Positions 6,828-17,974 of a DNA stretch of 64,000 nt are shown in pieces. The DNA lies in contig NZ_CP054021.1 in NCBI RefSeq assembly GCF_005862305.2, forward strand, positions 2,418,001-2,482,000, written 5' to 3'. The position numbers were made by a program, and so were the translations under genes. This stretch comes from Rhizobium indicum. GTDB taxonomy: Bacteria > Pseudomonadota > Alphaproteobacteria > Rhizobiales > Rhizobiaceae. How positions within the stretch are numbered: the stretch's first letter is position 1; every line of letters starts with the position of its first letter. The notes beneath the pieces were generated by a model. The model was not told where the DNA came from, did not search any database, and was given only the letters and a program-made list of their open reading frames with translations.

Positions 6828-6940
6828 GCGCAGCCCTGCATCTCTTTTGCTGGCAAACGACAATCCCCGTTGCCTGCTAGCGGCAAGTACTTGATTATCT
6901 CGTTCAATAGGTAATCGAATCATGCTGCGGGAGGGGTGTC

Positions 6941-9862
6941 ATGACCGACGAGGCGCTTGTTGATCGCATGGCGCTGCCGCGCCCCGACGTGACCGCCATC
7001 GACGCGGAAGAGATCCTCCTTGCTCATTACAGCCTCTCCGGCACGCTTGCCGAACTCGGCAGCCAGCAGGATCGAAACTATCGCGTCGATAGCGACAGGG
7101 GTCGTTACGTCCTGAAGATCTGCCATGCCGCCTACGAGATCCGCGAGCTCGAAGCACAGAATGCGGCGATCCATCACCTCAAAAGCAGGCAAGGTGCGCC
7201 GCGCGTTCCGAAGGTGATCGCCACCAATGACGGGCGGGAGATCGTCGTCCTTACCGTGCGCGGGCAGGGCTATCAGGCCCGGCTGCTGGAATATCTGGAA
7301 GGCCATGGGCTGACGGAGCTGACCTATCTGGCGCCGGCTTCCGTTGCAGCCCTCGGCGCGCTCTGCGCCAGGCTGGCGCAGGCGCTTGCCGATTTCGACC
7401 ATCCCGGTCTCGACCGCAGCCTGCAATGGGATCTCAGACGGGCAGGTCCCGTTGCCGTGCAGCTGCTTTCGGCCATCACCGACGGTGCGGCGCGCGACCG
7501 GATCGCCAAGACCATGGTGATGGCCGTTCGCCGCATCCAGCCGTTGGCGCCGTCGCTTCGGCTGCAGGCCGTGCATCACGACGTCACCGGTGACAATGTC
7601 GTCGGCCACCGTGACGCCCGTGGCCATATCGTCCCCGACGGGGTGATCGATTTCGGCGACATCATCCGCGGCTGGCTGGTCGGCGACCTCGCCGTCACCT
7701 GTGCTTCGCTGCTGCATCAGGCAGATGGCGACCCCTTTCATATCCTGCCCGCCGTCACCGCCTATCAGGCGATCTATCCGCTGAGCGACGAGGAACTGAA
7801 GGCGCTCTGGCCGTTGATCGTCGCACGCGCGGTCATTCTCGTCGCCAGCGGCGAGCAGCAGATTTCGGTCGATCCCGACAATGACTATGTCCGCGACAAT
7901 CTTGACCGCGAGCGGGCGATCTTCGATACGGCGATGTCGGTTCCCTTCGATCTCATGGAAGCAGCGATCCTCAAGGCAGCCGGCGCAGATGTGGCCGCGC
8001 CGGAAATATCGGGATGGCTGCCGTTGCTGCCGGACATCGATCCCGCCGGGATCGCCTATGTCGATCTCGGGGTACGGAGCCCGCATTTTTCCGCCGGCAA
8101 TTGGCTGAATACGGACATGGACTGGCGGCTGCTTGCCCGCATGGCAACCGAAAACGGTACGGCAGCGACGCGCTACGGCGAATATCGGCTTTCCCGCGCG
8201 GGAACCGCGAAGGGACAGGCGACCTGCGCCCTGCACGTCGACATATGCCTTGCCGCAGGCAGCGCGATTGCCGCGCCCTTTGCCGGCCGCATCGGCTGGA
8301 AGGACCAGCATCTGACGCTCGCCAGCGACACCATGACCCTGCATCTCGATGGGCTCGACCTCTCGGTCGAGGATGGAGCCGAGATCGCCGCCGGCGATTC
8401 GCTCGGCACGGTTTTCGGAGAGGCGTCGTCGCTCGGTGGGCTGCGCGTCCAGCTTTGCAGCGTCGCCGGTCTCGAACCGCCGCTCTTTGCTTCACCGCGC
8501 GCGGCGGCGGCCTGGTCGGTGCTCTGCCCTTCGCCCTCACTGCTTCTCAGCCCGCAAGCGGATGCGCCGCAAGCTGAAACCGCGGAGCTCTTCGCCAGGC
8601 GGCGGGTGCATCTCGCAAGGTCGCAGAAGAATTATTATGCAGCGCCGCCGCAGATCGAGCGCGGCTGGAAGGAGCATTTGTTCGATGTCGAGGGCCGCGC
8701 CTATCTCGACATGGTCAACAACGTCACCATTCTCGGCCATGGCCATCCCAAGCTCGCGGCGGCGATCAGCGCGCAATGGCTGCGGCTCAACACGAATTCG
8801 CGCTTCCACTATGCGGCGATTACGGAATTTTCCGAACGCCTCGCCGCCCTGTCACCGGATGGGCTCGACGCGGTCTTCCTGGTCAACAGCGGCTCGGAGG
8901 CGAACGATCTGGCGCTTCGGCTGGCGCAAGCCCATAGCGGCGCGCGCAACATGCTCTGCCTGCTCGAAGCCTATCATGGGTGGTCGGCGGCAAGTGATGC
9001 CGTCTCCACCTCGATCGCCGACAATCCGCAGGCGCGGAGCACCCGGCCGGACTGGGTGCATGCCGTCATTTCACCGAATACCTATCGCGGCGCATTTCGT
9101 GGTCCCGATACCGCGGCAAACTATCTCAGCGCGGTAACGCCGGTACTGGAGGCGATCGACGCCGGCGGCAACGGCCTTGCGGGCGTCATCTGCGAATCGG
9201 TCTACGGCAATGCCGGCGGCATTCCGCTTCCGGACGGTTATCTCAGGGAAATCTATGCGCAGGTGCGCGCGCGCGGCGGCCTCTGCATCGCCGATGAGGT
9301 GCAGGTCGGCTATTCCAGGCTCGGACATTATTTCTGGGGCTTCGAACAGCAAGGGGTGGTGCCCGATATCATCACCATCGCCAAGGGCATGGGCAACGGC
9401 CATCCGCTCGGCGCCGTCATCACCACGCGGGAGATCGCGCAATCGCTGGAGAAGGAGGGTACCTTCTTTTCCTCCACCGGCGGCAGCCCGGTCAGTTGCG
9501 TCGCCGGCATGACGGTGCTCGACATCATGGCCGAGGAAAAGCTGCAGGAAAATGCCCGGACGGTCGGTGATCATCTGAAGGCGCGGCTCGCCGCGCTGAT
9601 CGACCGCCATCCGATTGCAGGCGCCGTGCACGGCATGGGCCTCTATCTCGGCCTCGAATTCGTCCGCGACAGAACGACGCTGGAGCCGGCGACGGAAGAG
9701 ACGGCTGCAATTTGCGACCGGCTTCTCGAACTCGGCGTCATCATGCAGCCGACCGGCGATCACCAAAATGTGCTGAAGATCAAACCACCGCTCTGCCTCA
9801 GCATCGAAAGCGCGGATTTTTTCGCGGACATGCTGGAGAAGGTGCTCGAAGAAGGCTGGTGA
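6941..9862 (+). CDS. fusion: APH-type kinase + M23-like domain + class-III aminotransferase (phospho-lyase type)
   Basis: 973 residues, start supported by GGGAGGGG. Residues about 1-340 are an aminoglycoside/hydroxylysine-type small-molecule kinase with catalytic D214 and N219 in HHDVTGDN and metal-binding DFGD (237-240). Residues about 390-530 resemble the beta-sheet domain of M23 peptidases (GSAIAAPFAGRIGW, LHLDGL) but lack an intact zinc-site pattern. Residues about 550-970 are a PLP-dependent class-III aminotransferase with DEVQVGYSRLGHYFWGFE and Schiff-base lysine K815 in IAKGMGNGHP. The DEVQVG..R.G..FW.F string is that of ethanolamine-phosphate and phosphohydroxylysine phospho-lyases. 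Inferred action: phosphorylate an amino alcohol, then eliminate phosphate. Substrate unknown. Confidence 0.88.
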   Translation: MTDEALVDRMALPRPDVTAIDAEEILLAHYSLSGTLAELGSQQDRNYRVDSDRGRYVLKICHAAYEIRELEAQNAAIHHLKSRQGAPRVPKVIATNDGREIVVLTVRGQGYQARLLEYLEGHGLTELTYLAPASVAALGALCARLAQALADFDHPGLDRSLQWDLRRAGPVAVQLLSAITDGAARDRIAKTMVMAVRRIQPLAPSLRLQAVHHDVTGDNVVGHRDARGHIVPDGVIDFGDIIRGWLVGDLAVTCASLLHQADGDPFHILPAVTAYQAIYPLSDEELKALWPLIVARAVILVASGEQQISVDPDNDYVRDNLDRERAIFDTAMSVPFDLMEAAILKAAGADVAAPEISGWLPLLPDIDPAGIAYVDLGVRSPHFSAGNWLNTDMDWRLLARMATENGTAATRYGEYRLSRAGTAKGQATCALHVDICLAAGSAIAAPFAGRIGWKDQHLTLASDTMTLHLDGLDLSVEDGAEIAAGDSLGTVFGEASSLGGLRVQLCSVAGLEPPLFASPRAAAAWSVLCPSPSLLLSPQADAPQAETAELFARRRVHLARSQKNYYAAPPQIERGWKEHLFDVEGRAYLDMVNNVTILGHGHPKLAAAISAQWLRLNTNSRFHYAAITEFSERLAALSPDGLDAVFLVNSGSEANDLALRLAQAHSGARNMLCLLEAYHGWSAASDAVSTSIADNPQARSTRPDWVHAVISPNTYRGAFRGPDTAANYLSAVTPVLEAIDAGGNGLAGVICESVYGNAGGIPLPDGYLREIYAQVRARGGLCIADEVQVGYSRLGHYFWGFEQQGVVPDIITIAKGMGNGHPLGAVITTREIAQSLEKEGTFFSSTGGSPVSCVAGMTVLDIMAEEKLQENARTVGDHLKARLAALIDRHPIAGAVHGMGLYLGLEFVRDRTTLEPATEETAAICDRLLELGVIMQPTGDHQNVLKIKPPLCLSIESADFFADMLEKVLEEGW

Positions 9863-10383: not shown

Positions 10384-10578
10384 ATGAAGAAGCAAGTTAT
10401 CGAATATGCAGGCGTTCCCGTCGGGATCGTCATTCCCGATGAAGACCGGCTGAAGTTCATCGCCGTGAAATTTCATGTCCACGACCTCGACGAGCAGCGT
10501 TTCGGCTCGCCGGACGAGGTGCGGCTGGCCATCCATGACCTGATGACCCGCCGTCATCCGAAGCCGCTTCATGCCTGA
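10384..10578 (+). CDS. small conserved-looking protein, 64 residues
   Basis: Starts at ATG 10384 with AGGAG eight bases upstream; the longer frame from 10303 has no such site. The protein begins MKKQVIEYAGVPVGIVIPDE and continues with FIAVKFHVHDLDEQRFGSPDEVRLAIHDL. A beta-rich first half is followed by a helix, with coding-like composition and a strong terminator just after its stop. I do not recognise the family. The dyad and possible leader peptide upstream suggest a regulated small unit. No signal peptide or membrane helix is seen, so it is probably cytoplasmic. Confidence 0.7.
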   Translation: MKKQVIEYAGVPVGIVIPDEDRLKFIAVKFHVHDLDEQRFGSPDEVRLAIHDLMTRRHPKPLHA

Positions 10579-10621: not shown

Positions 10622-10657
10622 GACCGGTCCCGCCAAATGGGGCCGGTCTTGTTTTTT
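10622..10657 (+). terminator. intrinsic terminator after the small gene
   Basis: GACCGGTCCC pairs with GGGGCCGGTC (ten pairs including one G-U) across a 7-base loop and is followed by TTGTTTTTT. It ends the small-gene unit 45 bases after its stop and isolates it from the P1 peptidase gene. Confidence 0.88.
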
Positions 10658-10664
10658 GAGGGCA

Positions 10665-10765
10665 TTACAGCGCCGCGCGTCTATATCAGACGCGCGGCGC
10701 TGTAACACTTTGAATTGCTGCATAATTTTATCCTTAAATCGATTCCGATTTAAGGAATTATGCAG
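10665..10765. repeat. two-palindrome intergenic repeat (family B), copy 1
   Basis: The first palindrome has perfect 18-base arms, TTACAGCGCCGCGCGTCT and its complement, around a 5-base loop (10665-10705). The second (10718-10765) pairs CTGCATAATT with AATTATGCAG and CCTTAAATCG with CGATTTAAGG. The same pair of palindromes, with the same TTTGAATTGCTGCA-type joint, appears inverted at 33696-33795. Confidence 0.9.
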
Positions 10766-10805
10766 TACAGTCCTACCGGCCGCCTTTCCGCATAAGGATC
10801 CGCCC

Positions 10806-11801
10806 TTGCCCGATCTTCTCAACCTCATCACCGATATCGAAGGCGTTTCCGTCGGCCATGCAACCGACCTTGCGCTCGGTTCCGGCGTCACGGTCATCGT
10901 CTTCGACGAACCGGCCGTCGCATCCGGCACGGTGCTCGGCGGTGCGCCGGGCGGGCGCGACACCGGCCTGCTCGATCCATCGATGACCGTCAATGCCGTT
11001 GATGCCTTCGCGCTTTCCGGCGGCTCTGCCTTCGGGCTGGATGCCGCCGGCGGCGTGCAGGCGGGCCTGCGCGAACTCGGCCGCGGCTTTACCGTCGGGT
11101 CGGTGCGCATTCCGATCGTGCCGCAGGCAATCCTGATGGACCTGCTGAACGGTGGCGACAAGGATTGGGGCCTTCACTCGCCCTATCGCGACATGGGCTA
11201 CGCGGCATTGAAGGCAGCCACCAAGGGTGCATTCGCGCTCGGCACGGCAGGCGCCGGCACGGGAGCGACGACGGCCACCGTCAAGGGTGGGCTCGGCTCG
11301 GCCTGCACCGTCAGCAGTGCCGGGCATCGCGTCGCGGCAATCGTCGCTGTCAACGCGCTGGGCTCGGCAACGATCGGCGACGGGCCGCATTTCTGGGCGG
11401 CACCTTTCGAAAAAGATGCGGAATTCGGCGGGCTCGGCATGCCTGATGTGGCCGACCACCGGATGCGGCTCAAGGGCATGAACACGCCGGCAACGACGAT
11501 CGGCGCTGTGGTGACCGATGCGCAGCTGACCAAGGCCGAGGCGCATCGGCTTTCGCTCGCCGGTCATGACGGGTTTGCCCGGGCACTGCTGCCGGCGCAC
11601 CTGCCGCTCGACGGCGACACCGTCTTTGCCGCATCGACGGCCAGGCATCGACGAGACGACATGGCAAGCCTGATGGAGCTTTGCCATCTTGCGACCATCG
11701 TCATGGCGCGGGCGATCGCCCGGGGCGTCTACGCGGCGACTGCGCTGCCGGTCGAGGGCGCACAAAAGGCATGGTGCGACCGCTATCCGAATGGTCATTG
11801 A
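10806..11801 (+). CDS. P1-family peptidase (DmpA/NylC-like N-terminal nucleophile hydrolase)
   Basis: 331 residues from a TTG at 10806 with AAGGA eight bases upstream; the 50 codons before it lie in the repeat and are not protein-like. Family markers are ITDIEGVSVGHATD at the N-terminus, TVIVFDEP, GGAPGGRDTGLLDP, ALSGGSAFGLDAAGGV, and TTIGAVVTDAQLTKAEAHRL. The self-cleavage site that creates the N-terminal nucleophile should lie at Thr230/231 before IGAVVTD. Relatives include L-aminopeptidase/D-esterase DmpA and the nylon-oligomer hydrolase NylC, so the substrate could be a peptide or other amide. It precedes a LysR gene on the same strand by 55 bases. Confidence 0.9.
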   Translation: MPDLLNLITDIEGVSVGHATDLALGSGVTVIVFDEPAVASGTVLGGAPGGRDTGLLDPSMTVNAVDAFALSGGSAFGLDAAGGVQAGLRELGRGFTVGSVRIPIVPQAILMDLLNGGDKDWGLHSPYRDMGYAALKAATKGAFALGTAGAGTGATTATVKGGLGSACTVSSAGHRVAAIVAVNALGSATIGDGPHFWAAPFEKDAEFGGLGMPDVADHRMRLKGMNTPATTIGAVVTDAQLTKAEAHRLSLAGHDGFARALLPAHLPLDGDTVFAASTARHRRDDMASLMELCHLATIVMARAIARGVYAATALPVEGAQKAWCDRYPNGH

Positions 11802-11856
11802 TTGAATAGGGTCTGAACCGGGCAGACCGAATATGCCGAATGGCGGAGAGATGTGA

Positions 11857-12777
11857 ATGCAGATCCGGGCGCTGATGTATTTCGACGAGCTGGTCAGGAC
11901 GAATTCGATGCGCCAGGCGGCCGAGAACCTGAATGTCGCGCCGACGGCGATCAGCCGGCAGATCGAGAACCTCGAATATCATTTCGGCGCGCCGCTCGTC
12001 GAACGCAGCGCCCGTGGCGTCAAGCTGACGGCCGCTGGCGAGCTGCTTGCCGCCCGCGCCGGCCGGACGCTGCGCGAGCTCGATCATGTGCAGCAGCTGA
12101 TCGAAGACCTCAAGGGCCTGCAGCGCGGCCGTGTCAGCATTTATGCCAATGGCGCCACCGTCGCCAATCTGCTGGCGCCGGCGCTTGCCGAATTCAGCCT
12201 GAAATATCCGAAGCTGCGTTTTACCGTGACGATCACCAGCGCGCGGCAGGCGGTCGATGCCGTCAACAGCGCCGAGGCGGATATTGCGGTCACGCTGTTT
12301 GCGCCTGTCATGTCCGGCACCAAGGTGCGGCTGCGCTCCGAGATCGCCTATGATCTCATCGCCACGCCGCAGCATCCGGCCGCCGCGCATGCCGAGATCC
12401 CGCTGAGGACGCTTGCCGACTACGCGTTGGCGCTGCCGGATCAATCCTTCGGCTTCCGCCAGGCCTTCGACGCGCTGTTCGAGAAGGAAGGGTTGAGCCT
12501 CGATCCCGTCTTCGTCACCAGCTCGCTCGAAATGCTGAAGGAACTCGTGCTCAGCGGGGCTGCGGTCACGCTGCTGCCGGCGCTAACCGTCCGCCGCGAG
12601 ATCGAGGCGGGTCAGCTCCTTGCCATTCCACTGGCCGGCAAAACCGGCATCCGCACCCATGTCGATCTCTGCGTCGCGCCGGACCGGCAGCTGTCCTTCG
12701 CCGCGACGAAACTGCTCGACTTCATCGAAAGGTTCATGCGCGAGCGCACGAACCGCCGGGCCGAGACGAAAGACTGA
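11857..12777 (+). CDS. LysR-family transcriptional regulator
   Basis: 306 residues. The winged-helix DNA-binding domain covers about residues 1-62 (ALMYFDELVRTNSMRQAAENL, then VAPTAISRQIENLE). A linker helix and a periplasmic-binding-like effector domain follow from about residue 90. Such proteins usually control neighbouring genes in response to a small ligand. It lies between the P1 peptidase gene and an oligopeptide-type ABC binding protein, so peptide or amide uptake is the likely target. Two inverted repeats lie between it and the downstream transporter gene. Confidence 0.93.
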   Translation: MQIRALMYFDELVRTNSMRQAAENLNVAPTAISRQIENLEYHFGAPLVERSARGVKLTAAGELLAARAGRTLRELDHVQQLIEDLKGLQRGRVSIYANGATVANLLAPALAEFSLKYPKLRFTVTITSARQAVDAVNSAEADIAVTLFAPVMSGTKVRLRSEIAYDLIATPQHPAAAHAEIPLRTLADYALALPDQSFGFRQAFDALFEKEGLSLDPVFVTSSLEMLKELVLSGAAVTLLPALTVRREIEAGQLLAIPLAGKTGIRTHVDLCVAPDRQLSFAATKLLDFIERFMRERTNRRAETKD

Positions 12778-12809
12778 CGCTTCGAGCTTGCATTGCCCGC
12801 GGATATCAG

Positions 12810-12830
12810 GTGTAGCTTTTTTGGCTACAC
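12810..12830. terminator. inverted repeat after the LysR gene, possible weak terminator
   Basis: GTGTAGC and GCTACAC form a perfect 7-base stem around a T-rich loop, 33 bases after the LysR stop. There is no T-run after the stem, so it could equally be a protein-binding site. Confidence 0.35.
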
Positions 12831-12833
12831 TGA

Positions 12834-12859
12834 GCACACAAAATCATCATTGTGTGTGC
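12834..12859. promoter_or_regulatory. candidate operator before the ABC binding-protein gene
   Basis: CACACAA and TTGTGTG form a 7-base inverted repeat with an 8-base spacer, about 70-90 bases before the start of the transporter gene and just after the LysR gene. Position and size fit a LysR-type site, but this is only a pattern match. Confidence 0.35.
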
Positions 12860-12924
12860 ACCGGCATAGTGTCACTCTCCTCGCAAAAGGTCGTCGTCAT
12901 CGACGCACGGCCAGATAAGGGAAC

Positions 12925-14457
12925 ATGATGATCAAGCTTTCGTTTGCGCCTTCAGCGCGATTCGCCCGGCGGCTTTCGCTCGGTGCCGCGCTTTCGGCCG
13001 GCCTGGTGATGACGGCGATGACGCCGGCCGAGGCGGCGAAGACCACGCTCAATCTCGGCATGAGCGTCGAGCCGACTGGTCTCGACCCAACGATCGCAGC
13101 ACCGGTCGCAATCGGCCAGGTGACCTGGCAGAACGTGTTCGAGGGCTTGGTGACGATCGACCAGGCCGGTAAGATCCAGCCGCAGCTGGCAAAAAGCTGG
13201 GAGATCTCTCCCGATGGCCTGACCTATACGTTCAAGCTGCAGACCGGCGTCAAATTCCATGACGGCGAGGCCTTCGATGCCGCGAGCGCCAAGTTTTCGC
13301 TCGACCGCGCCCGCGGCGCCGATTCGGTCAATCCGCAGAAGCGCTTTTTCGCCTCGATCGCCTCGATCGATACGCCCGATGCCGAAACGCTGGTGCTGCA
13401 TCTCTCGGCCCCGACCGGCAGCCTGATCTACTGGCTCGGCTGGCCAGCCTCGGTGATGGTCGCACCGAAGACGGCGGCCGGCGACAAGACGACGCCGGTA
13501 GGTACCGGTCCCTTCAAATTCGCCAGCTGGGCGAAGGGCGACAAGGTCGAACTGGAAAAGAATGCCGATTACTGGAACAAGGATGCGGCCGCCAAGCTCG
13601 ACAAGGTGACCTTCCGCTTCATTGCCGATCCGCAGGCGCAGGCGGCAGCGCTGAAATCCGGCGACCTCGATGCCTTTCCGGAATTTGCAGCACCCGAGCT
13701 GATGAGTTCGTTCGACGGCGATGCGAGGCTCGTCACCAAGATCGGCAATACCGAACTCAAGGTCGTTGCCGGCATGAACAATGCCAAGAAGCCCTTCGAC
13801 GACAAGCGTGTCCGCCAGGCGCTGATGATGGCGATCGACCGCAAGACGGTGATCGACGGCGCGTGGTCCGGCCTCGGCACACCGATCGGCAGCCACTACA
13901 CGCCGAACGATCCGGGTTACCAGGACATGACTGGCGTGCTGCCCTACGACGTCGAAAAGGCGAAGGCGTTGCTCACCGAAGCCGGCTACCCCAATGGCTT
14001 CACCTTCACGATCAAATCGCCACAGATGGCCTATGCGCCGCGCAGCGCCCAAGTGATACAGGCAATGTTTGCCGAGATCGGCGTGACGATGAATATCGAG
14101 CCGACTGAATTTCCGGCGAAATGGGTCCAGGACATCATGAAGGACCGCAACTTCGACATGACAATCGTCGCCCATGCCGAGCCGCTCGACATCGACATCT
14201 ATGCCCGCGATCCCTATTATTTCAATTACAAGAACCCTGCTTTCAACGCGCTGATGAAGAAGGTCCAGGAGACGGCCGATCCTGCCGCGCAGAATGCGAT
14301 CTATGGCGAAGCGCAGAAGATCCTCGCCGAGGACGTGCCGGCGCTCTACCTCTTCGTTATGCCGAAACTCTGCGTCTGGGACAAAAAGCTGAAGGGCCTG
14401 TGGGAGAACGAGCCGATCCCTTCCAACGTGCTGTCTGGTGTTTCCTGGGACGAGTGA
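12925..14457 (+). CDS. ABC transporter substrate-binding protein, peptide/nickel family 5
   Basis: 510 residues with a signal peptide of about 38 residues (twin Arg then LSLGAALSAGLVM, cleavage near AEAAKTT). The SBP family-5 pattern is complete: LNLGMSVEPTGLDPT, NVFEGLV, LAKSWEISPDGLTYTFKLQTGVKFHDGE, PVGTGPFKFASW and the C-terminal LYLFVMPKLCVW. It binds a ligand in the periplasm for the two permeases that follow. Family-5 ligands are di- and oligopeptides, nickel or opine-like compounds; the adjoining amidase and peptidases favour a peptide or amide. The cluster contains no ATPase. It could also start at the second ATG (12928). Confidence 0.93.
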   Translation: MMIKLSFAPSARFARRLSLGAALSAGLVMTAMTPAEAAKTTLNLGMSVEPTGLDPTIAAPVAIGQVTWQNVFEGLVTIDQAGKIQPQLAKSWEISPDGLTYTFKLQTGVKFHDGEAFDAASAKFSLDRARGADSVNPQKRFFASIASIDTPDAETLVLHLSAPTGSLIYWLGWPASVMVAPKTAAGDKTTPVGTGPFKFASWAKGDKVELEKNADYWNKDAAAKLDKVTFRFIADPQAQAAALKSGDLDAFPEFAAPELMSSFDGDARLVTKIGNTELKVVAGMNNAKKPFDDKRVRQALMMAIDRKTVIDGAWSGLGTPIGSHYTPNDPGYQDMTGVLPYDVEKAKALLTEAGYPNGFTFTIKSPQMAYAPRSAQVIQAMFAEIGVTMNIEPTEFPAKWVQDIMKDRNFDMTIVAHAEPLDIDIYARDPYYFNYKNPAFNALMKKVQETADPAAQNAIYGEAQKILAEDVPALYLFVMPKLCVWDKKLKGLWENEPIPSNVLSGVSWDE

Positions 14458-14547
14458 GAGGGTTAGGTCAGGCGCGATGTGATGAGGTGATGGCCTTGGC
14501 GCCGGAAGCAGAACAGTCGGATATGGTCGACTCACGCGAACCTCTCG

Positions 14548-14691
14548 CTCCCTCATTCCTGTGCTTGTCACAGGAATCCAGTGCGCCCAAGTCTTTGGGC
14601 GCGGGAGAAGTACTTACTCATCGCATGAGAGTTATTCACGGCGCAGACGCGCCGTGGCTGGATTCCTGTGACGAGCACAGGAATGAGGGAG
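14548..14691. repeat. long inverted-repeat element (family D) with nested hairpins
   Basis: Outer arms of 34 bases (14548-14581 and 14658-14691) match at 33 of 34 positions as inverted repeats. Each arm is itself a hairpin, TTCCTGTG with CACAGGAA. Between them lie further dyads: GCGCCCAA with TTTGGGCGC, ACTCAT with ATGAGAGT, and CGGCGC with GCGCCG. It fills most of the 265-base gap between the binding-protein gene and the first permease gene. Confidence 0.92.
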
Positions 14692-14731
14692 TGCGGGGAA
14701 GCCGCCGTTCCACATCGAAAGCGTGGCACGC

Positions 14732-15679
14732 ATGATCCCACTCCTCGCCCGCCGCTTCGCCGGTCTCATCGTCACGCTCGTCGTCGTCTCGCTGCTGATC
14801 TTTGCCGTCATGGACCTTCTGCCCGGCGATCCCGCCTCGATCATGCTCGGCACCTCGGCAACACCGGAAACCCTTGCAGCGCTCCGTGACAGTCTCGGCC
14901 TCGAGCAGCCGCTGTTGCTGCGCTACGGGCAATGGTTGGCCGGCGTGCTCTCCGGCGATCTCGGCAATTCCCTGACCTATGGCGTACCGGTGGCAGGATT
15001 GATCGTCGAGCGGCTGGCGGTAACACTGCCGCTGGCGCTGATGGCGATCGTGCTTTCGGTGGCGATTGCCCTGCCGCTCGGCGTGCTGGCCGCCTCGCGC
15101 CGCGGCGGTATCTTCGACGTCATCGCGACGCTGTTTTCGCAGATCAGCATCGCCGTGCCCGCCTTCTGGGTGGCGCTGCTGTTGATCATCCTGTTTTCGA
15201 CGAAGCTCGGGCTGATGCCGGCCGGCGGCTTCCCGGGCTGGAGCTCCGGTCTGATGCCGGCATTGCAGGCGCTGGTTATGCCCGCCGTCGCGCTGGCGAT
15301 GCCGCAGGCGGGCGTGTTGACGCGGGTGGCGCGCTCGGCTGTGCTTGACACGATGCACGAGGATTTTGCCCGCACCGCGGTCGCCAAAGGGCTGTCACGC
15401 AGTGCGGTGCTTTGGCACCATATCGTGCCGAATGCGCTGATCCCGATCCTGACGATGATCGGGTTGCAATTCACCTTTCTCGTCGCCGGCGCGGTGCTGG
15501 TGGAAAACGTCTTCAACCTGCCCGGCCTCGGACGGCTCGCGCTTCAGGCGCTCTCCCAGCGCGACATCATCGTGATGCAGGATGTCGTGCTGTTCTTCGC
15601 AGGCCTGGTCATCGTGATGAATTTCATTGTCGATCTCTCTTATCTGGCGATCGATCCCAGGATGAGAAAGGCGGCCTGA
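14732..15679 (+). CDS. ABC transporter permease, DppB/OppB type
   Basis: 315 residues from ATG 14732 (a GTG at 14723 is also in frame). It has the long N-terminal helix typical of DppB proteins (LARRFAGLIVTLVVVSLL), the LPGDPASIML segment, five further helices, and the transport-ATPase contact loop near FARTAVAKGLSRSAVLWHHIVPNA. The C-terminus ENVFNLPGLGRLALQAL is the DppB signature. It forms the inner-membrane channel with the next gene. No ribosome-binding site stands out, and the 144-base palindromic element separates it from the binding-protein gene. Confidence 0.92.
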   Translation: MIPLLARRFAGLIVTLVVVSLLIFAVMDLLPGDPASIMLGTSATPETLAALRDSLGLEQPLLLRYGQWLAGVLSGDLGNSLTYGVPVAGLIVERLAVTLPLALMAIVLSVAIALPLGVLAASRRGGIFDVIATLFSQISIAVPAFWVALLLIILFSTKLGLMPAGGFPGWSSGLMPALQALVMPAVALAMPQAGVLTRVARSAVLDTMHEDFARTAVAKGLSRSAVLWHHIVPNALIPILTMIGLQFTFLVAGAVLVENVFNLPGLGRLALQALSQRDIIVMQDVVLFFAGLVIVMNFIVDLSYLAIDPRMRKAA

Positions 15680-15682
15680 CGC

Positions 15683-16546
15683 ATGGCACCGATCGCATCC
15701 ACCGCAATTGCCAGCCGCCGTCGGGTCTTTATACTTAGCCGGCGAATGAATCTGATTTCAGGAGCTGTGATCATCGGCCTGCTCACCACCGTTGCGCTGC
15801 TGTCGCTCGTCTGGACGCCGCTGCCGCCGGCTAAAATGCAGATCATCCACAAATTGCAGCCGCCGCTTGCCTTCGGCCTGCTCGGCACGGACCAGTTCGG
15901 CCGCGATGTGCTTTCGATGCTGATGGCGGGCTGCTGGAATTCGCTGTCGATCGCCATCACAGCGGTTACGATCGGCGGGACGCTCGGCTCGATATCAGGC
16001 ATTTCGGCGGCGGCAATCCGCGGTCCCTTCGAAGCGCTGCTGATGCGCATTTGCGACGTCATCTTCGCGCTGCCGCCGATCCTGTCGGCCATGGTGCTCG
16101 GCGCCTTTCTCGGGCCAGGGCGGTTCACCGCGATCACCGCAATCGCCGTCTTCATGATCCCGGTCTTTGCCCGCGTCACACTCGCGACTTCGCTGCAGGC
16201 CTGGAGCCGCGACTATGTGACGGCGGCGCGCGCGATCGGCAATACGCGCCTGACCATTTCGCTGCGCCATGTGCTGCCGAATATCGCCAGCCAGATCATC
16301 GTGCATGGCGCGATTCAGCTGGGGCTGGCGATCCTGACCGAAGCGGGTCTCAGCTTCCTCGGACTCGGCATGGCACCGCCGGCGCCGACCTGGGGCCGGA
16401 TGCTTGCCGATGCGCAAACCTATCTGGCGCTCGCCCCCTGGCTGGCGATCCTGCCCGGCCTTGCCATCGCGCTCACCGTCTTCGGCTTCAACATGCTCGG
16501 CGACGGTTTGCGCGATCTGCTCGACCCGCGTGAGGCGAGCCGCTGA
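15683..16546 (+). CDS. ABC transporter permease, DppC/OppC type
   Basis: 287 residues starting three bases after the DppB-type gene, so translation is probably coupled. It shows the DppC-type opening helix (RRMNLISGAVIIGLL), LLGTDQFGRDVLSMLMAG, and the ATPase contact loop WSRDYVTAARAIGNTRLTISLRHVLPN. The end has GLSFLGLGMAPPAPTWGRML. It pairs with the preceding permease. The next gene downstream is an amidase, not the DppD/DppF ATPases normally found at this place. Confidence 0.93.
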   Translation: MAPIASTAIASRRRVFILSRRMNLISGAVIIGLLTTVALLSLVWTPLPPAKMQIIHKLQPPLAFGLLGTDQFGRDVLSMLMAGCWNSLSIAITAVTIGGTLGSISGISAAAIRGPFEALLMRICDVIFALPPILSAMVLGAFLGPGRFTAITAIAVFMIPVFARVTLATSLQAWSRDYVTAARAIGNTRLTISLRHVLPNIASQIIVHGAIQLGLAILTEAGLSFLGLGMAPPAPTWGRMLADAQTYLALAPWLAILPGLAIALTVFGFNMLGDGLRDLLDPREASR

Positions 16547-16582
16547 TGTCCTCCCAGGTCGAAAAGCCCGAAAGACCATGCC

Positions 16583-17974
16583 ATGACCGAAACCGACCTT
16601 ACCATCCACGAACTCAGGCAGCGCTTCGCCGATAAGAGCCTCTCCCCTCTCGAATACTGGCTCGCCCTCGAAGACCGTATTGCCGCCTGGGAGCCGTCGA
16701 TTTCGGCACTCTACCTCTACGATCCGGCATCGGCGCGCGCCCAGGCGAAAGCGTCGACGGAGCGCTGGGCGAAGGCAGAAACGCTAGGCCCCCTCGACGG
16801 CATCCCGGTGACGCTGAAGGAACTGATCGCCACGAAGGGCCAGCCGGTGCCATCAGGCACGAGGGCAGTGGAACTGAAGCCGGCAGAGGCCGACGCACCG
16901 GCCGCCGCGCGGCTGCGGGAAGACGGCGCGGTGATCTTCGCCAAGACCACCTGCCCCGATTACGGCATGCTTTCCTCCGGACTTTCGAGCTTTCATCCTC
17001 TCAGCCGCAATCCCTGGAACACCACACAGAATCCCGGCGGATCGAGTGCTGGGGCTTCCGCGGCGGCGGCGGCCGGCTACGGGCCGCTGCATATCGGCAC
17101 CGATATCGGCGGCTCGGTGCGCCTTCCCGCCGGCTGGACCGGCATCTTCGGCTTCAAACCGAGCCATGGACGCATTCCGGCCGATCCCTATTATGTCGGG
17201 CGCTGCGTCGGGCCGATGGCACGCACCGTCGAGGATGCGGCTTTTTCGATGGCGACGCTGTCACGGCCGGACTGGCGCGACGGCACCAGCCTGCCGCCGA
17301 ACGATTTCAACTGGATGGATCTCGACATCGACCTGTCGGGCATGAAGATCGGGTTGATGCTCGATGCCGGCTGCGGGCTTGCGGTGGACGACGAGATCAG
17401 GGCCGCGGTCGAAACGGCGGCGAAACAATTCGAGGCGGCCGGCGCGTCGATTCTATCGGTCCAGCCAGTGCTGACACGCGCGATGCTGGATGGGCTCGAC
17501 AATTTCTGGCGATCCCGGCTCTGGGGCGATATCGCCGATCTCGACGACAACAGGCGCAACAGCATCCTGCCTTATATCAGGGATTGGGCGAAGGGCGGCG
17601 CCGACATCCGCGGCATCGATGCGGTCAGAGGCTTCAACCAGACGATCGAGATGCGCAAGAGCTGCGGACGGCTGTTCACCGAGGTCGACGCCCTGCTTTC
17701 GCCGACCAATCCGATCATCTCCTATCCGGCCGAATGGGCATCTCCGACCAATGATCCGGCCCTGCCGTTCGAACATATCGGTTTCACGGTGCCGTGGAAC
17801 ATGTCGGAGCAGCCGGCCGCCTCGATCAATTGCGGTTTCTCCCGCTCGGGCATGCCGATCGGGTTGCAGATCGTCGGGCCGCGCTTCGACGACATGCGGG
17901 TGCTCAGACTGTCGAAGGCCTTCGAGGATTGGACGGGTGGAGTGAGATCGTGGCCGCAGCCTCCGATCGGCTGA
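16583..17974 (+). CDS. amidase signature family enzyme
   Basis: 463 residues. The amidase signature catalytic triad is visible: K79 in GIPVTLKELIA, the cis serine in PGGSSAGASA (154/155) and the nucleophile S178 in GTDIGGSVRLPAG. These hydrolases cut carboxamides. The gene follows the two permease genes by 36 bases and is likely cotranscribed, so the imported compound probably carries an amide group. The last codon abuts the stop of the convergent NlpC/P60 gene with no gap. It is shorter than GatA, and no gatB or gatC is adjacent, so a tRNA amidotransferase role is unlikely. Confidence 0.92.
   Translation: MTETDLTIHELRQRFADKSLSPLEYWLALEDRIAAWEPSISALYLYDPASARAQAKASTERWAKAETLGPLDGIPVTLKELIATKGQPVPSGTRAVELKPAEADAPAAARLREDGAVIFAKTTCPDYGMLSSGLSSFHPLSRNPWNTTQNPGGSSAGASAAAAAGYGPLHIGTDIGGSVRLPAGWTGIFGFKPSHGRIPADPYYVGRCVGPMARTVEDAAFSMATLSRPDWRDGTSLPPNDFNWMDLDIDLSGMKIGLMLDAGCGLAVDDEIRAAVETAAKQFEAAGASILSVQPVLTRAMLDGLDNFWRSRLWGDIADLDDNRRNSILPYIRDWAKGGADIRGIDAVRGFNQTIEMRKSCGRLFTEVDALLSPTNPIISYPAEWASPTNDPALPFEHIGFTVPWNMSEQPAASINCGFSRSGMPIGLQIVGPRFDDMRVLRLSKAFEDWTGGVRSWPQPPIG

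What the first reader, a model, noticed from the sequence alone, without database searches (positions are those of the whole stretch)
6941..9862. Three-domain fusion of small-molecule kinase, M23-like domain and PLP phospho-lyase
One polypeptide carries an APH/hydroxylysine-type kinase with intact HHDVTGDN and DFGD, a degenerate M23-like beta domain, and an aminotransferase-fold domain with the DEVQVG..R.G..FW.F string of ethanolamine-phosphate and phosphohydroxylysine phospho-lyases. In animals the hydroxylysine kinase and phospho-lyase are separate proteins. A fused kinase plus lyase would give one-step phosphorylation and elimination of an amino alcohol. The M23-like middle part is unexplained.
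Basis: partly seen in the sequence, partly recalled or inferred. Interest (0 to 1): 0.75.

Follow-up and report, generated by a model that had tools for sequence, protein, structure and literature searches.

The report
Fused amino-alcohol kinase and phospho-lyase
One Rhizobium protein joins a small-molecule kinase and a phosphate-eliminating PLP enzyme through a dead peptidase-like domain; it belongs to a widespread, already catalogued bacterial family and probably turns an amino alcohol into an aldehyde plus ammonia.

Summary
The 973-aa ORF at 6941..9862(+) carries an APH-type kinase, a middle domain with the M23/LytM fold but without its zinc ligands, and a class III PLP domain whose nearest solved structure is human O-phosphoethanolamine phospho-lyase. 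As a fusion it is not new: it is a full-length member of NCBI family PRK06149 (1653 bits, cut-off 973), with relatives in Rhizobiaceae, Pseudomonas and Actinobacteria. From recall, such bi- and tri-functional bacterial proteins were the published clue (2012) to the animal hydroxylysine kinase and phospho-lyases.

Added here: the unexplained middle part is the dead form of a domain that is intact in alphaproteobacterial relatives (zinc motifs in 22 of 22 aligned rows, against 0 of 81 rows of the window's type). It keeps the fold and is under purifying selection. Kinase and lyase residues are nearly invariant. Elsewhere the two activities are adjacent genes or a fusion without a middle domain.

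Best reading: ATP phosphorylates an amino alcohol, then the PLP domain removes phosphate and ammonia to give an aldehyde. The substrate is not settled; the genome also has an ethanolamine ammonia-lyase large subunit, which weakens ethanolamine.

The parts
6930..6936 (+). GGAGGGG, ribosome-binding-like, just upstream of the ATG
   Evidence: read; by eye
6941..9862 (+). Whole gene: kinase, dead M23-like domain, PLP phospho-lyase-like domain (973 aa)
6941..7975 (+). Kinase domain, residues 1-345 (Pfam APH 39-264)
   Evidence: boundaries
7574..7597 (+). Kinase catalytic motif HHDVTGDN, residues 212-219
7649..7660 (+). Kinase metal-binding motif DFGD, residues 237-240
7976..8581 (+). Middle domain, residues 346-547: M23/LytM fold without zinc ligands
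8582..9859 (+). Class III PLP domain of phospho-lyase type, residues 548-973
8786..8803 (+). LNTNSR string, residues 616-621, typical of the lyase relatives and absent in six own-genome paralogues
   Evidence: it was also a search pattern
9293..9310 (+). DEVQVG, residues 785-790, with the PLP-ring aspartate D785
   Evidence: role of D785 by homology
9383..9385 (+). K815, expected PLP Schiff-base lysine
   Evidence: 111 of 111 rows; role by homology

Best explanation
A bifunctional catabolic enzyme. The N-terminal kinase transfers phosphate from ATP to the hydroxyl of an amino alcohol or hydroxy-amine. The C-terminal PLP domain (K815 Schiff base, D785) takes the vicinal amino O-phosphate, eliminates phosphate, and releases an enamine/imine that hydrolyses to an aldehyde and ammonia. 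Net: amino alcohol + ATP + H2O -> aldehyde + NH4+ + ADP + Pi. The middle domain is a catalytically dead M23 (LytM) domain kept as a structural spacer or contact module. SHOWN: domain content, conserved catalytic residues, fold of the middle domain and loss of its zinc ligands, family membership, spread, unfused relatives. INFERRED: the reaction, hand-over between domains, the substrate. On the substrate I commit only to a vicinal amino alcohol from amino-acid or amine catabolism (such as 1-amino-2-propanol, a hydroxylated diamine or hydroxylysine) rather than ethanolamine alone.
For: Catalytic positions in 111 aligned rows: kinase D214, N219, D237, D240 in 110-111; lyase K815, D785, E786, Q788, R793, H679, N617, N619, R621 in 111. 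Nearest solved structures: 6tor, human O-phosphoethanolamine phospho-lyase (41% identity), then 5g4i, a bacterial phospholyase. Lyases of fusions, unfused lyases and both known phospho-lyases stand apart from 8 transaminase-like rows, SH-aLRT 99. Of 20 fetched regions around unfused lyases 16 have a related kinase gene next to the lyase on the same strand and one more an APH gene there; fusion without a middle domain exists (8 rows). A related unfused lyase lies beside an ethanolamine permease gene (TIGR00908, 615 bits, cut-off 382). Middle domain: M23/LytM fold, zinc ligands gone in 81 of 81 type II rows, dN/dS 0.20-0.43.
Against: No activity is known for any type II protein. Type II is sister (support 89) to the clade holding both characterised phospho-lyases, so its function is not bracketed by them. 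Class III enzymes are mostly transaminases. Neighbour genes give no single substrate. Conservation of the LNTN.R and GG[SN]PV strings is partly built in, as 80 loci were found with them. The lyase part of the full model has stretches under pLDDT 50.
Confidence: 0.8

Rival explanations
1. It is specifically an ethanolamine-utilising enzyme: ethanolamine kinase plus phosphoethanolamine phospho-lyase, turning phospholipid head groups into acetaldehyde and ammonia.
For: Nearest solved structure acts on phosphoethanolamine. A related unfused lyase sits beside an ethanolamine permease gene.
Against: The own genome has EutB, the ethanolamine ammonia-lyase large subunit (713.8 bits; EutC was not searched). 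No ethanolamine permease was seen beside a type II gene among the neighbours tested by family search. Neighbours of type II point to other amines and amino acids: aguB and aguA, hutC, hutF and hutI.
Confidence: 0.17
2. The PLP domain is a transaminase or another class III enzyme and the kinase acts on an unrelated or regulatory target, as the database name 'aminotransferase' suggests.
For: NCBI names the family 'aminotransferase'; most class III enzymes are transaminases (stated in PMC8154272, passages).
Against: Closest solved structures are phospho-lyases; grouping with them against 8 transaminase-like rows; repeated pairing with the same kinase, fused or unfused.
Confidence: 0.1
3. The middle domain of the window's protein is still an active enzyme or a metal site of another kind.
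For: It keeps its fold and is under purifying selection in 8 comparisons; relatives have an intact zinc site.
Against: 0 of 81 type II rows keep the zinc set. It is the least conserved of the three domains in all 18 comparisons that have it, and has the highest dN/dS in all 8 (dS is near or above 1 in six of the eight for that domain).
Confidence: 0.07

Closest known systems
NCBIfam NF004800 (PRK06149, equivalog, 'aminotransferase')
   Same: Full-length match 1-973 at 1652.6 bits, cut-off 973
   Different: Nothing; this protein is a member. The family name says nothing of the kinase or of a lyase reaction.
NCBIfam NF004799 (PRK06148, 'hypothetical protein')
   Same: Same three-domain order; window scores 697.7 bits
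   Different: Below its cut-off of 1128; members such as L158-L166 keep an intact M23 zinc site
Animal ethanolamine-phosphate phospho-lyase (ETNPPL, PDB 6tor) and 5-phosphohydroxy-L-lysine phospho-lyase (PHYKPL)
   Same: Lyase domain 41% identical to 6tor with the PLP residues kept
   Different: Animal enzymes are separate from their kinase; no PHYKPL sequence was available to compare
Arthrobacter phospholyase A1RDF1 (PDB 5g4i)
   Same: Lyase domain 34% identical
   Different: Solved as a single-domain protein; groups with the unfused bacterial lyases
M23/LytM peptidases (lysostaphin, LytM) and LytM domain of EnvC
   Same: Fold of the middle domain
   Different: No zinc ligands and no Pfam M23 hit; here it lies between two metabolic enzymes. 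That EnvC is itself inactive is recalled

Membership tests
NCBIfam PRK06149 | Whole-protein score over the curated cut-off | tested here: met
   1652.6 bits, cut-off 973
Class III phospho-lyases (ETNPPL, PHYKPL, A1RDF1) | Fold type and PLP-binding residues | tested here: met
   Aminotran_3; K815 and D785 in 111 of 111 rows; 6tor nearest structure
Class III phospho-lyases (ETNPPL, PHYKPL, A1RDF1) | Falls inside a clade bounded by characterised phospho-lyases | tested here: inconclusive
   Groups with both known enzymes against 8 transaminase-like rows (99), but as sister to the clade that holds them (89)
Class III phospho-lyases (ETNPPL, PHYKPL, A1RDF1) | Releases phosphate and ammonia from an amino O-phosphate | not testable with these tools
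   needs an assay
APH-type small-molecule kinase | APH fold family and HxD..N / DFGD catalytic residues | tested here: met
   Pfam APH 88.3 bits, cut-off 23.2; residues kept
Hydroxylysine kinase (HYKK/AGPHD1) | Specific kinship to, or activity of, hydroxylysine kinase | tested here: inconclusive
   Two fungal relatives (59% and 53% identical) bear that name in UniRef, an automatic name; no PDB kinase found by sequence; no HYKK sequence compared
M23 peptidase | M23/LytM fold | tested here: met
M23 peptidase | Zinc ligands HxxxD and HxH | tested here: not met
   Absent in the window and in all 81 type II rows

The most novel reading that the evidence does not exclude
The family began as a true three-enzyme machine: a zinc amide hydrolase (M23), a kinase and a phospho-lyase acting in turn on one molecule, the hydrolase freeing an amino alcohol from an amide or peptide. 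The alphaproteobacterial type I proteins would still do all three steps; the window's type lost the hydrolase, whose work is done by separate enzymes or no longer needed. Hints: zinc motifs kept in 22 of 22 type I rows, a free-standing copy of this M23 domain in two genomes of one genus (Pfam M23 54 bits for the one tested), M20 hydrolase genes beside unfused kinase and lyase genes, and C-N hydrolases within 3 genes in 12 of 60 loci (near 13/357 genes, far 9/645, permutation p 0.0065, families chosen after looking).
Probability: 0.15. Interest if true: 0.65.

Novelty: new member of a known kind. Interest (0 to 1): 0.36.

Why it matters
The family is widespread and is named simply 'aminotransferase', which is probably wrong about the reaction and hides the kinase. 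Older biochemistry (recalled) describes kinase plus phospho-lyase breakdown of 1-aminopropan-2-ol and ethanolamine in Pseudomonas; whether those activities have been given genes was not checked, and this family is a testable candidate. The split between intact and dead M23 domains poses a clear question: what does a peptidase-like domain do inside a metabolic enzyme?

Tried and rejected
Substrate from gene neighbours, tried at scale: no single theme. In 60 chosen loci (of 119 with a located gene), within 3 genes against further away: Pot-type ABC transporters 10/357 against 20/645 (p 0.63), amino-acid permeases 7/357 against 5/645 (p 0.13), Lrp regulators 9/357 against 3/645 (p 0.003), C-N hydrolases 13/357 against 9/645 (p 0.0065). 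The families were picked after looking at neighbours, so the p-values flatter. My first version of this test was faulty because one seed was the fusion itself; its counts are discarded.

The first gene calls chose antisense frames in some high-GC loci and were redone with the fusion as training seed. In one search many minus-strand loci were read on the wrong strand; one search mended most, another the last three (L012, L020, L037). In one search one of seven own-genome paralogues (L002) was read antisense and is not counted. Some of my gene starts are off (L074 too long; L080, L114, L167 too short), which does not touch the counts of residues.

A HutD reading of a Sinorhizobium neighbour, made by eye, was not borne out: its only NCBIfam hit, a Ves model, is far below cut-off. 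A promoter scan found one site on the other strand and the terminator scan one hairpin (10622-10648), fewer than shuffles give (1.3 and 3.1), so neither is used as evidence.

Literature: ten text searches. In the listings I saw no title or abstract start about these fusions; nearly all listed papers were not opened, so this is weak absence. The 2012 JBC paper is not held: what I say of it is recall. PMC8154272, PMC9283133, PMC9007349, PMC13406643 and PMC4013574: passages only. A nitrogen-source fitness paper was not held.

Rows dropped: two partial loci (L093, L112) and pieces under 650 aa are not in the 111-row alignment. The tree used 35 of 81 type II, 13 of 22 type I and 8 of 8 type III rows; that used 11, 9 and 6; the kinase tree 13, 9 and 6. 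All are quick searches without bootstrap. Of the 20 regions several were picked because one search showed a kinase match beside the lyase, and some are near-copies (L172, L173, L179; L176, L177, L178), so 16 of 20 is not a frequency in nature.

Full report
WHAT IS THERE. The ORF at 6941..9862(+) codes for 973 aa, with GGAGGGG just upstream. Pfam finds an APH kinase (residues 39-264) and Aminotran_3 (571-969) and nothing between. NCBIfam PRK06149 matches the whole chain at 1652.6 bits, cut-off 973. Of the 120 listed database hits (1041 in all), 119 cover the whole query at 64-92% identity. The own genome has one full copy; its nine other matches reach only the PLP part.

THE LYASE DOMAIN. The best PDB sequence match is 6tor (ethanolamine-phosphate phospho-lyase, 337 bits), then 5g4i (a bacterial phospholyase, 260 bits), then dialkylglycine decarboxylase and racemases. 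The structure model (mean pLDDT 79, some lyase stretches under 50) gives the same order, 41% and 34% identity. In 111 aligned rows K815, D785, E786, Q788, R793, H679, N617, N619 and R621 are present in all; the LNTN.R string was also a search pattern, so its conservation is partly built in. The motif is absent in six own-genome paralogues. In a 48-row tree, fusions, unfused lyases and both known phospho-lyases stand apart from eight transaminase-like rows (SH-aLRT 99). The window's type (100) is sister to the clade (89) that holds human ETNPPL and A1RDF1, not nested in it. The reaction type is well supported, the substrate not.

THE KINASE DOMAIN. D214, N219, D237 and D240 are present in 110 or 111 of 111 rows as aligned; one row, L150, has no kinase domain, so a count of 111 includes an alignment accident. 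No PDB chain matches the kinase by sequence. Standalone relatives include five fungal proteins at 51-62% identity, two of them named 'Hydroxylysine kinase' in UniRef. In a 46-row kinase tree the five form one clade (100) beside the window's Rhizobium branch (89), within a type II group (100). This suggests transfer of the kinase part from a Rhizobium-like donor to fungi.

SPREAD AND HISTORY. Named type II relatives occur in Rhizobium, Sinorhizobium, Neorhizobium, Mycoplana, Pseudomonas and many Actinobacteria (best 80 kept). In 199 genomes of the own order 3 pass the PRK06149 cut-off, all of the own genus, and 15 more hold near-full-length relatives below it. In 398 genomes of the phylum 9 pass the PRK06148 cut-off. 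In the lyase tree type II is one clade, and Pseudomonas with Rhizobiaceae form a group (99) inside it, with actinobacterial rows outside that group. With the root on transaminases this suggests movement from Actinobacteria to Proteobacteria. In 20 regions fetched around unfused lyases, 16 have a related kinase gene next to the lyase on the same strand, most of them overlapping or within 41 bases, and one more (L187) has an APH gene there; several were picked with that in view.

NEIGHBOURS. In the window: purU 113 bp upstream; downstream a 64-aa ORF found in 11 rhizobial loci, then an S58 peptidase, a LysR gene, an SBP/permease set and an amidase, separated by gaps of 521 and 227 bases. Elsewhere: an agmatine deiminase cluster in 29 of 31 Pseudomonas loci, with aguB and aguA confirmed by family in the one tested; hutC upstream and hutF divergent in Sinorhizobium; a HAL-family lyase below the hutH cut-off in Neorhizobium; hutI, a RidA-family gene and an HpaB-like gene in a Thermoleophilia bacterium; Lrp/AsnC regulators and amino-acid permeases; an ethanolamine permease beside an unfused lyase, L182; M20 hydrolases beside unfused pairs L175 and L176. 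Near-versus-far counts favour Lrp and, less so, C-N hydrolases, but families were chosen after inspection. The common denominator is amine or amino-acid catabolism; no single substrate emerges. The own genome carries EutB, which weakens ethanolamine.

MECHANISM. Shown: domains, residues, fold, conservation, history. Inferred: ATP-dependent O-phosphorylation of an amino alcohol, then PLP-dependent removal of phosphate and ammonia to an aldehyde, with the dead M23 domain as spacer.

NOVELTY. The fusion is catalogued by NCBI. From recall, Veiga-da-Cunha et al. 2012 used such bacterial bi- and tri-functional proteins as the clue to the animal enzymes; that paper is not held, though a held paper cites it for the animal lyases (passage). 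[quoted passage not shown] In ten searches of the held library I saw no listing about these fusions or about the dead-versus-intact M23 split; most listed papers were not opened. I rate it a new member of a known kind, of moderate interest.

Noticed in passing
P0121, P0126, P0137, P0139, P0140: Fungal standalone kinases, 51-62% identical to the window's kinase part (the three read end near the kinase/M23 boundary), group beside the Rhizobium branch: likely transfer of the kinase part into fungi.
   Followed up: partly
L148:8967-9746 and L149:9085-9879: A free-standing M23 protein of about 260 aa that resembles the middle domain of the type I fusions, motifs intact, in two genomes of one genus, with no kinase or lyase among the called neighbours.
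   Followed up: partly
L150:8720-10795: A 692-aa M23 plus lyase protein without the kinase, with a permease related to ethanolamine permease below its cut-off (170 bits, cut-off 382) and a type III glutamine synthetase gene within 7 kb.
   Followed up: no
L176, L177, L178: Kinase gene ends in TAG and the lyase gene starts at the very next codon in the same frame, in three related genomes; the genome search lists open frames of 790-821 aa there, which does not agree with a stop between them.
   Followed up: no
10384-10578: A 64-aa ORF just downstream of the fusion, found in 11 rhizobial loci at a like distance; function unknown.
   Followed up: no
10656-17974: S58-family peptidase, LysR regulator, solute-binding protein, two permeases and an amidase in a row: looks like a peptide or amide uptake and hydrolysis set.
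   Followed up: no
L055 (Sinorhizobium medicae), about 14.1-15.9 kb: A second, 590-aa relative of the fusion on the opposite strand, with a solute-binding-like gene between it and the full copy.
   Followed up: no
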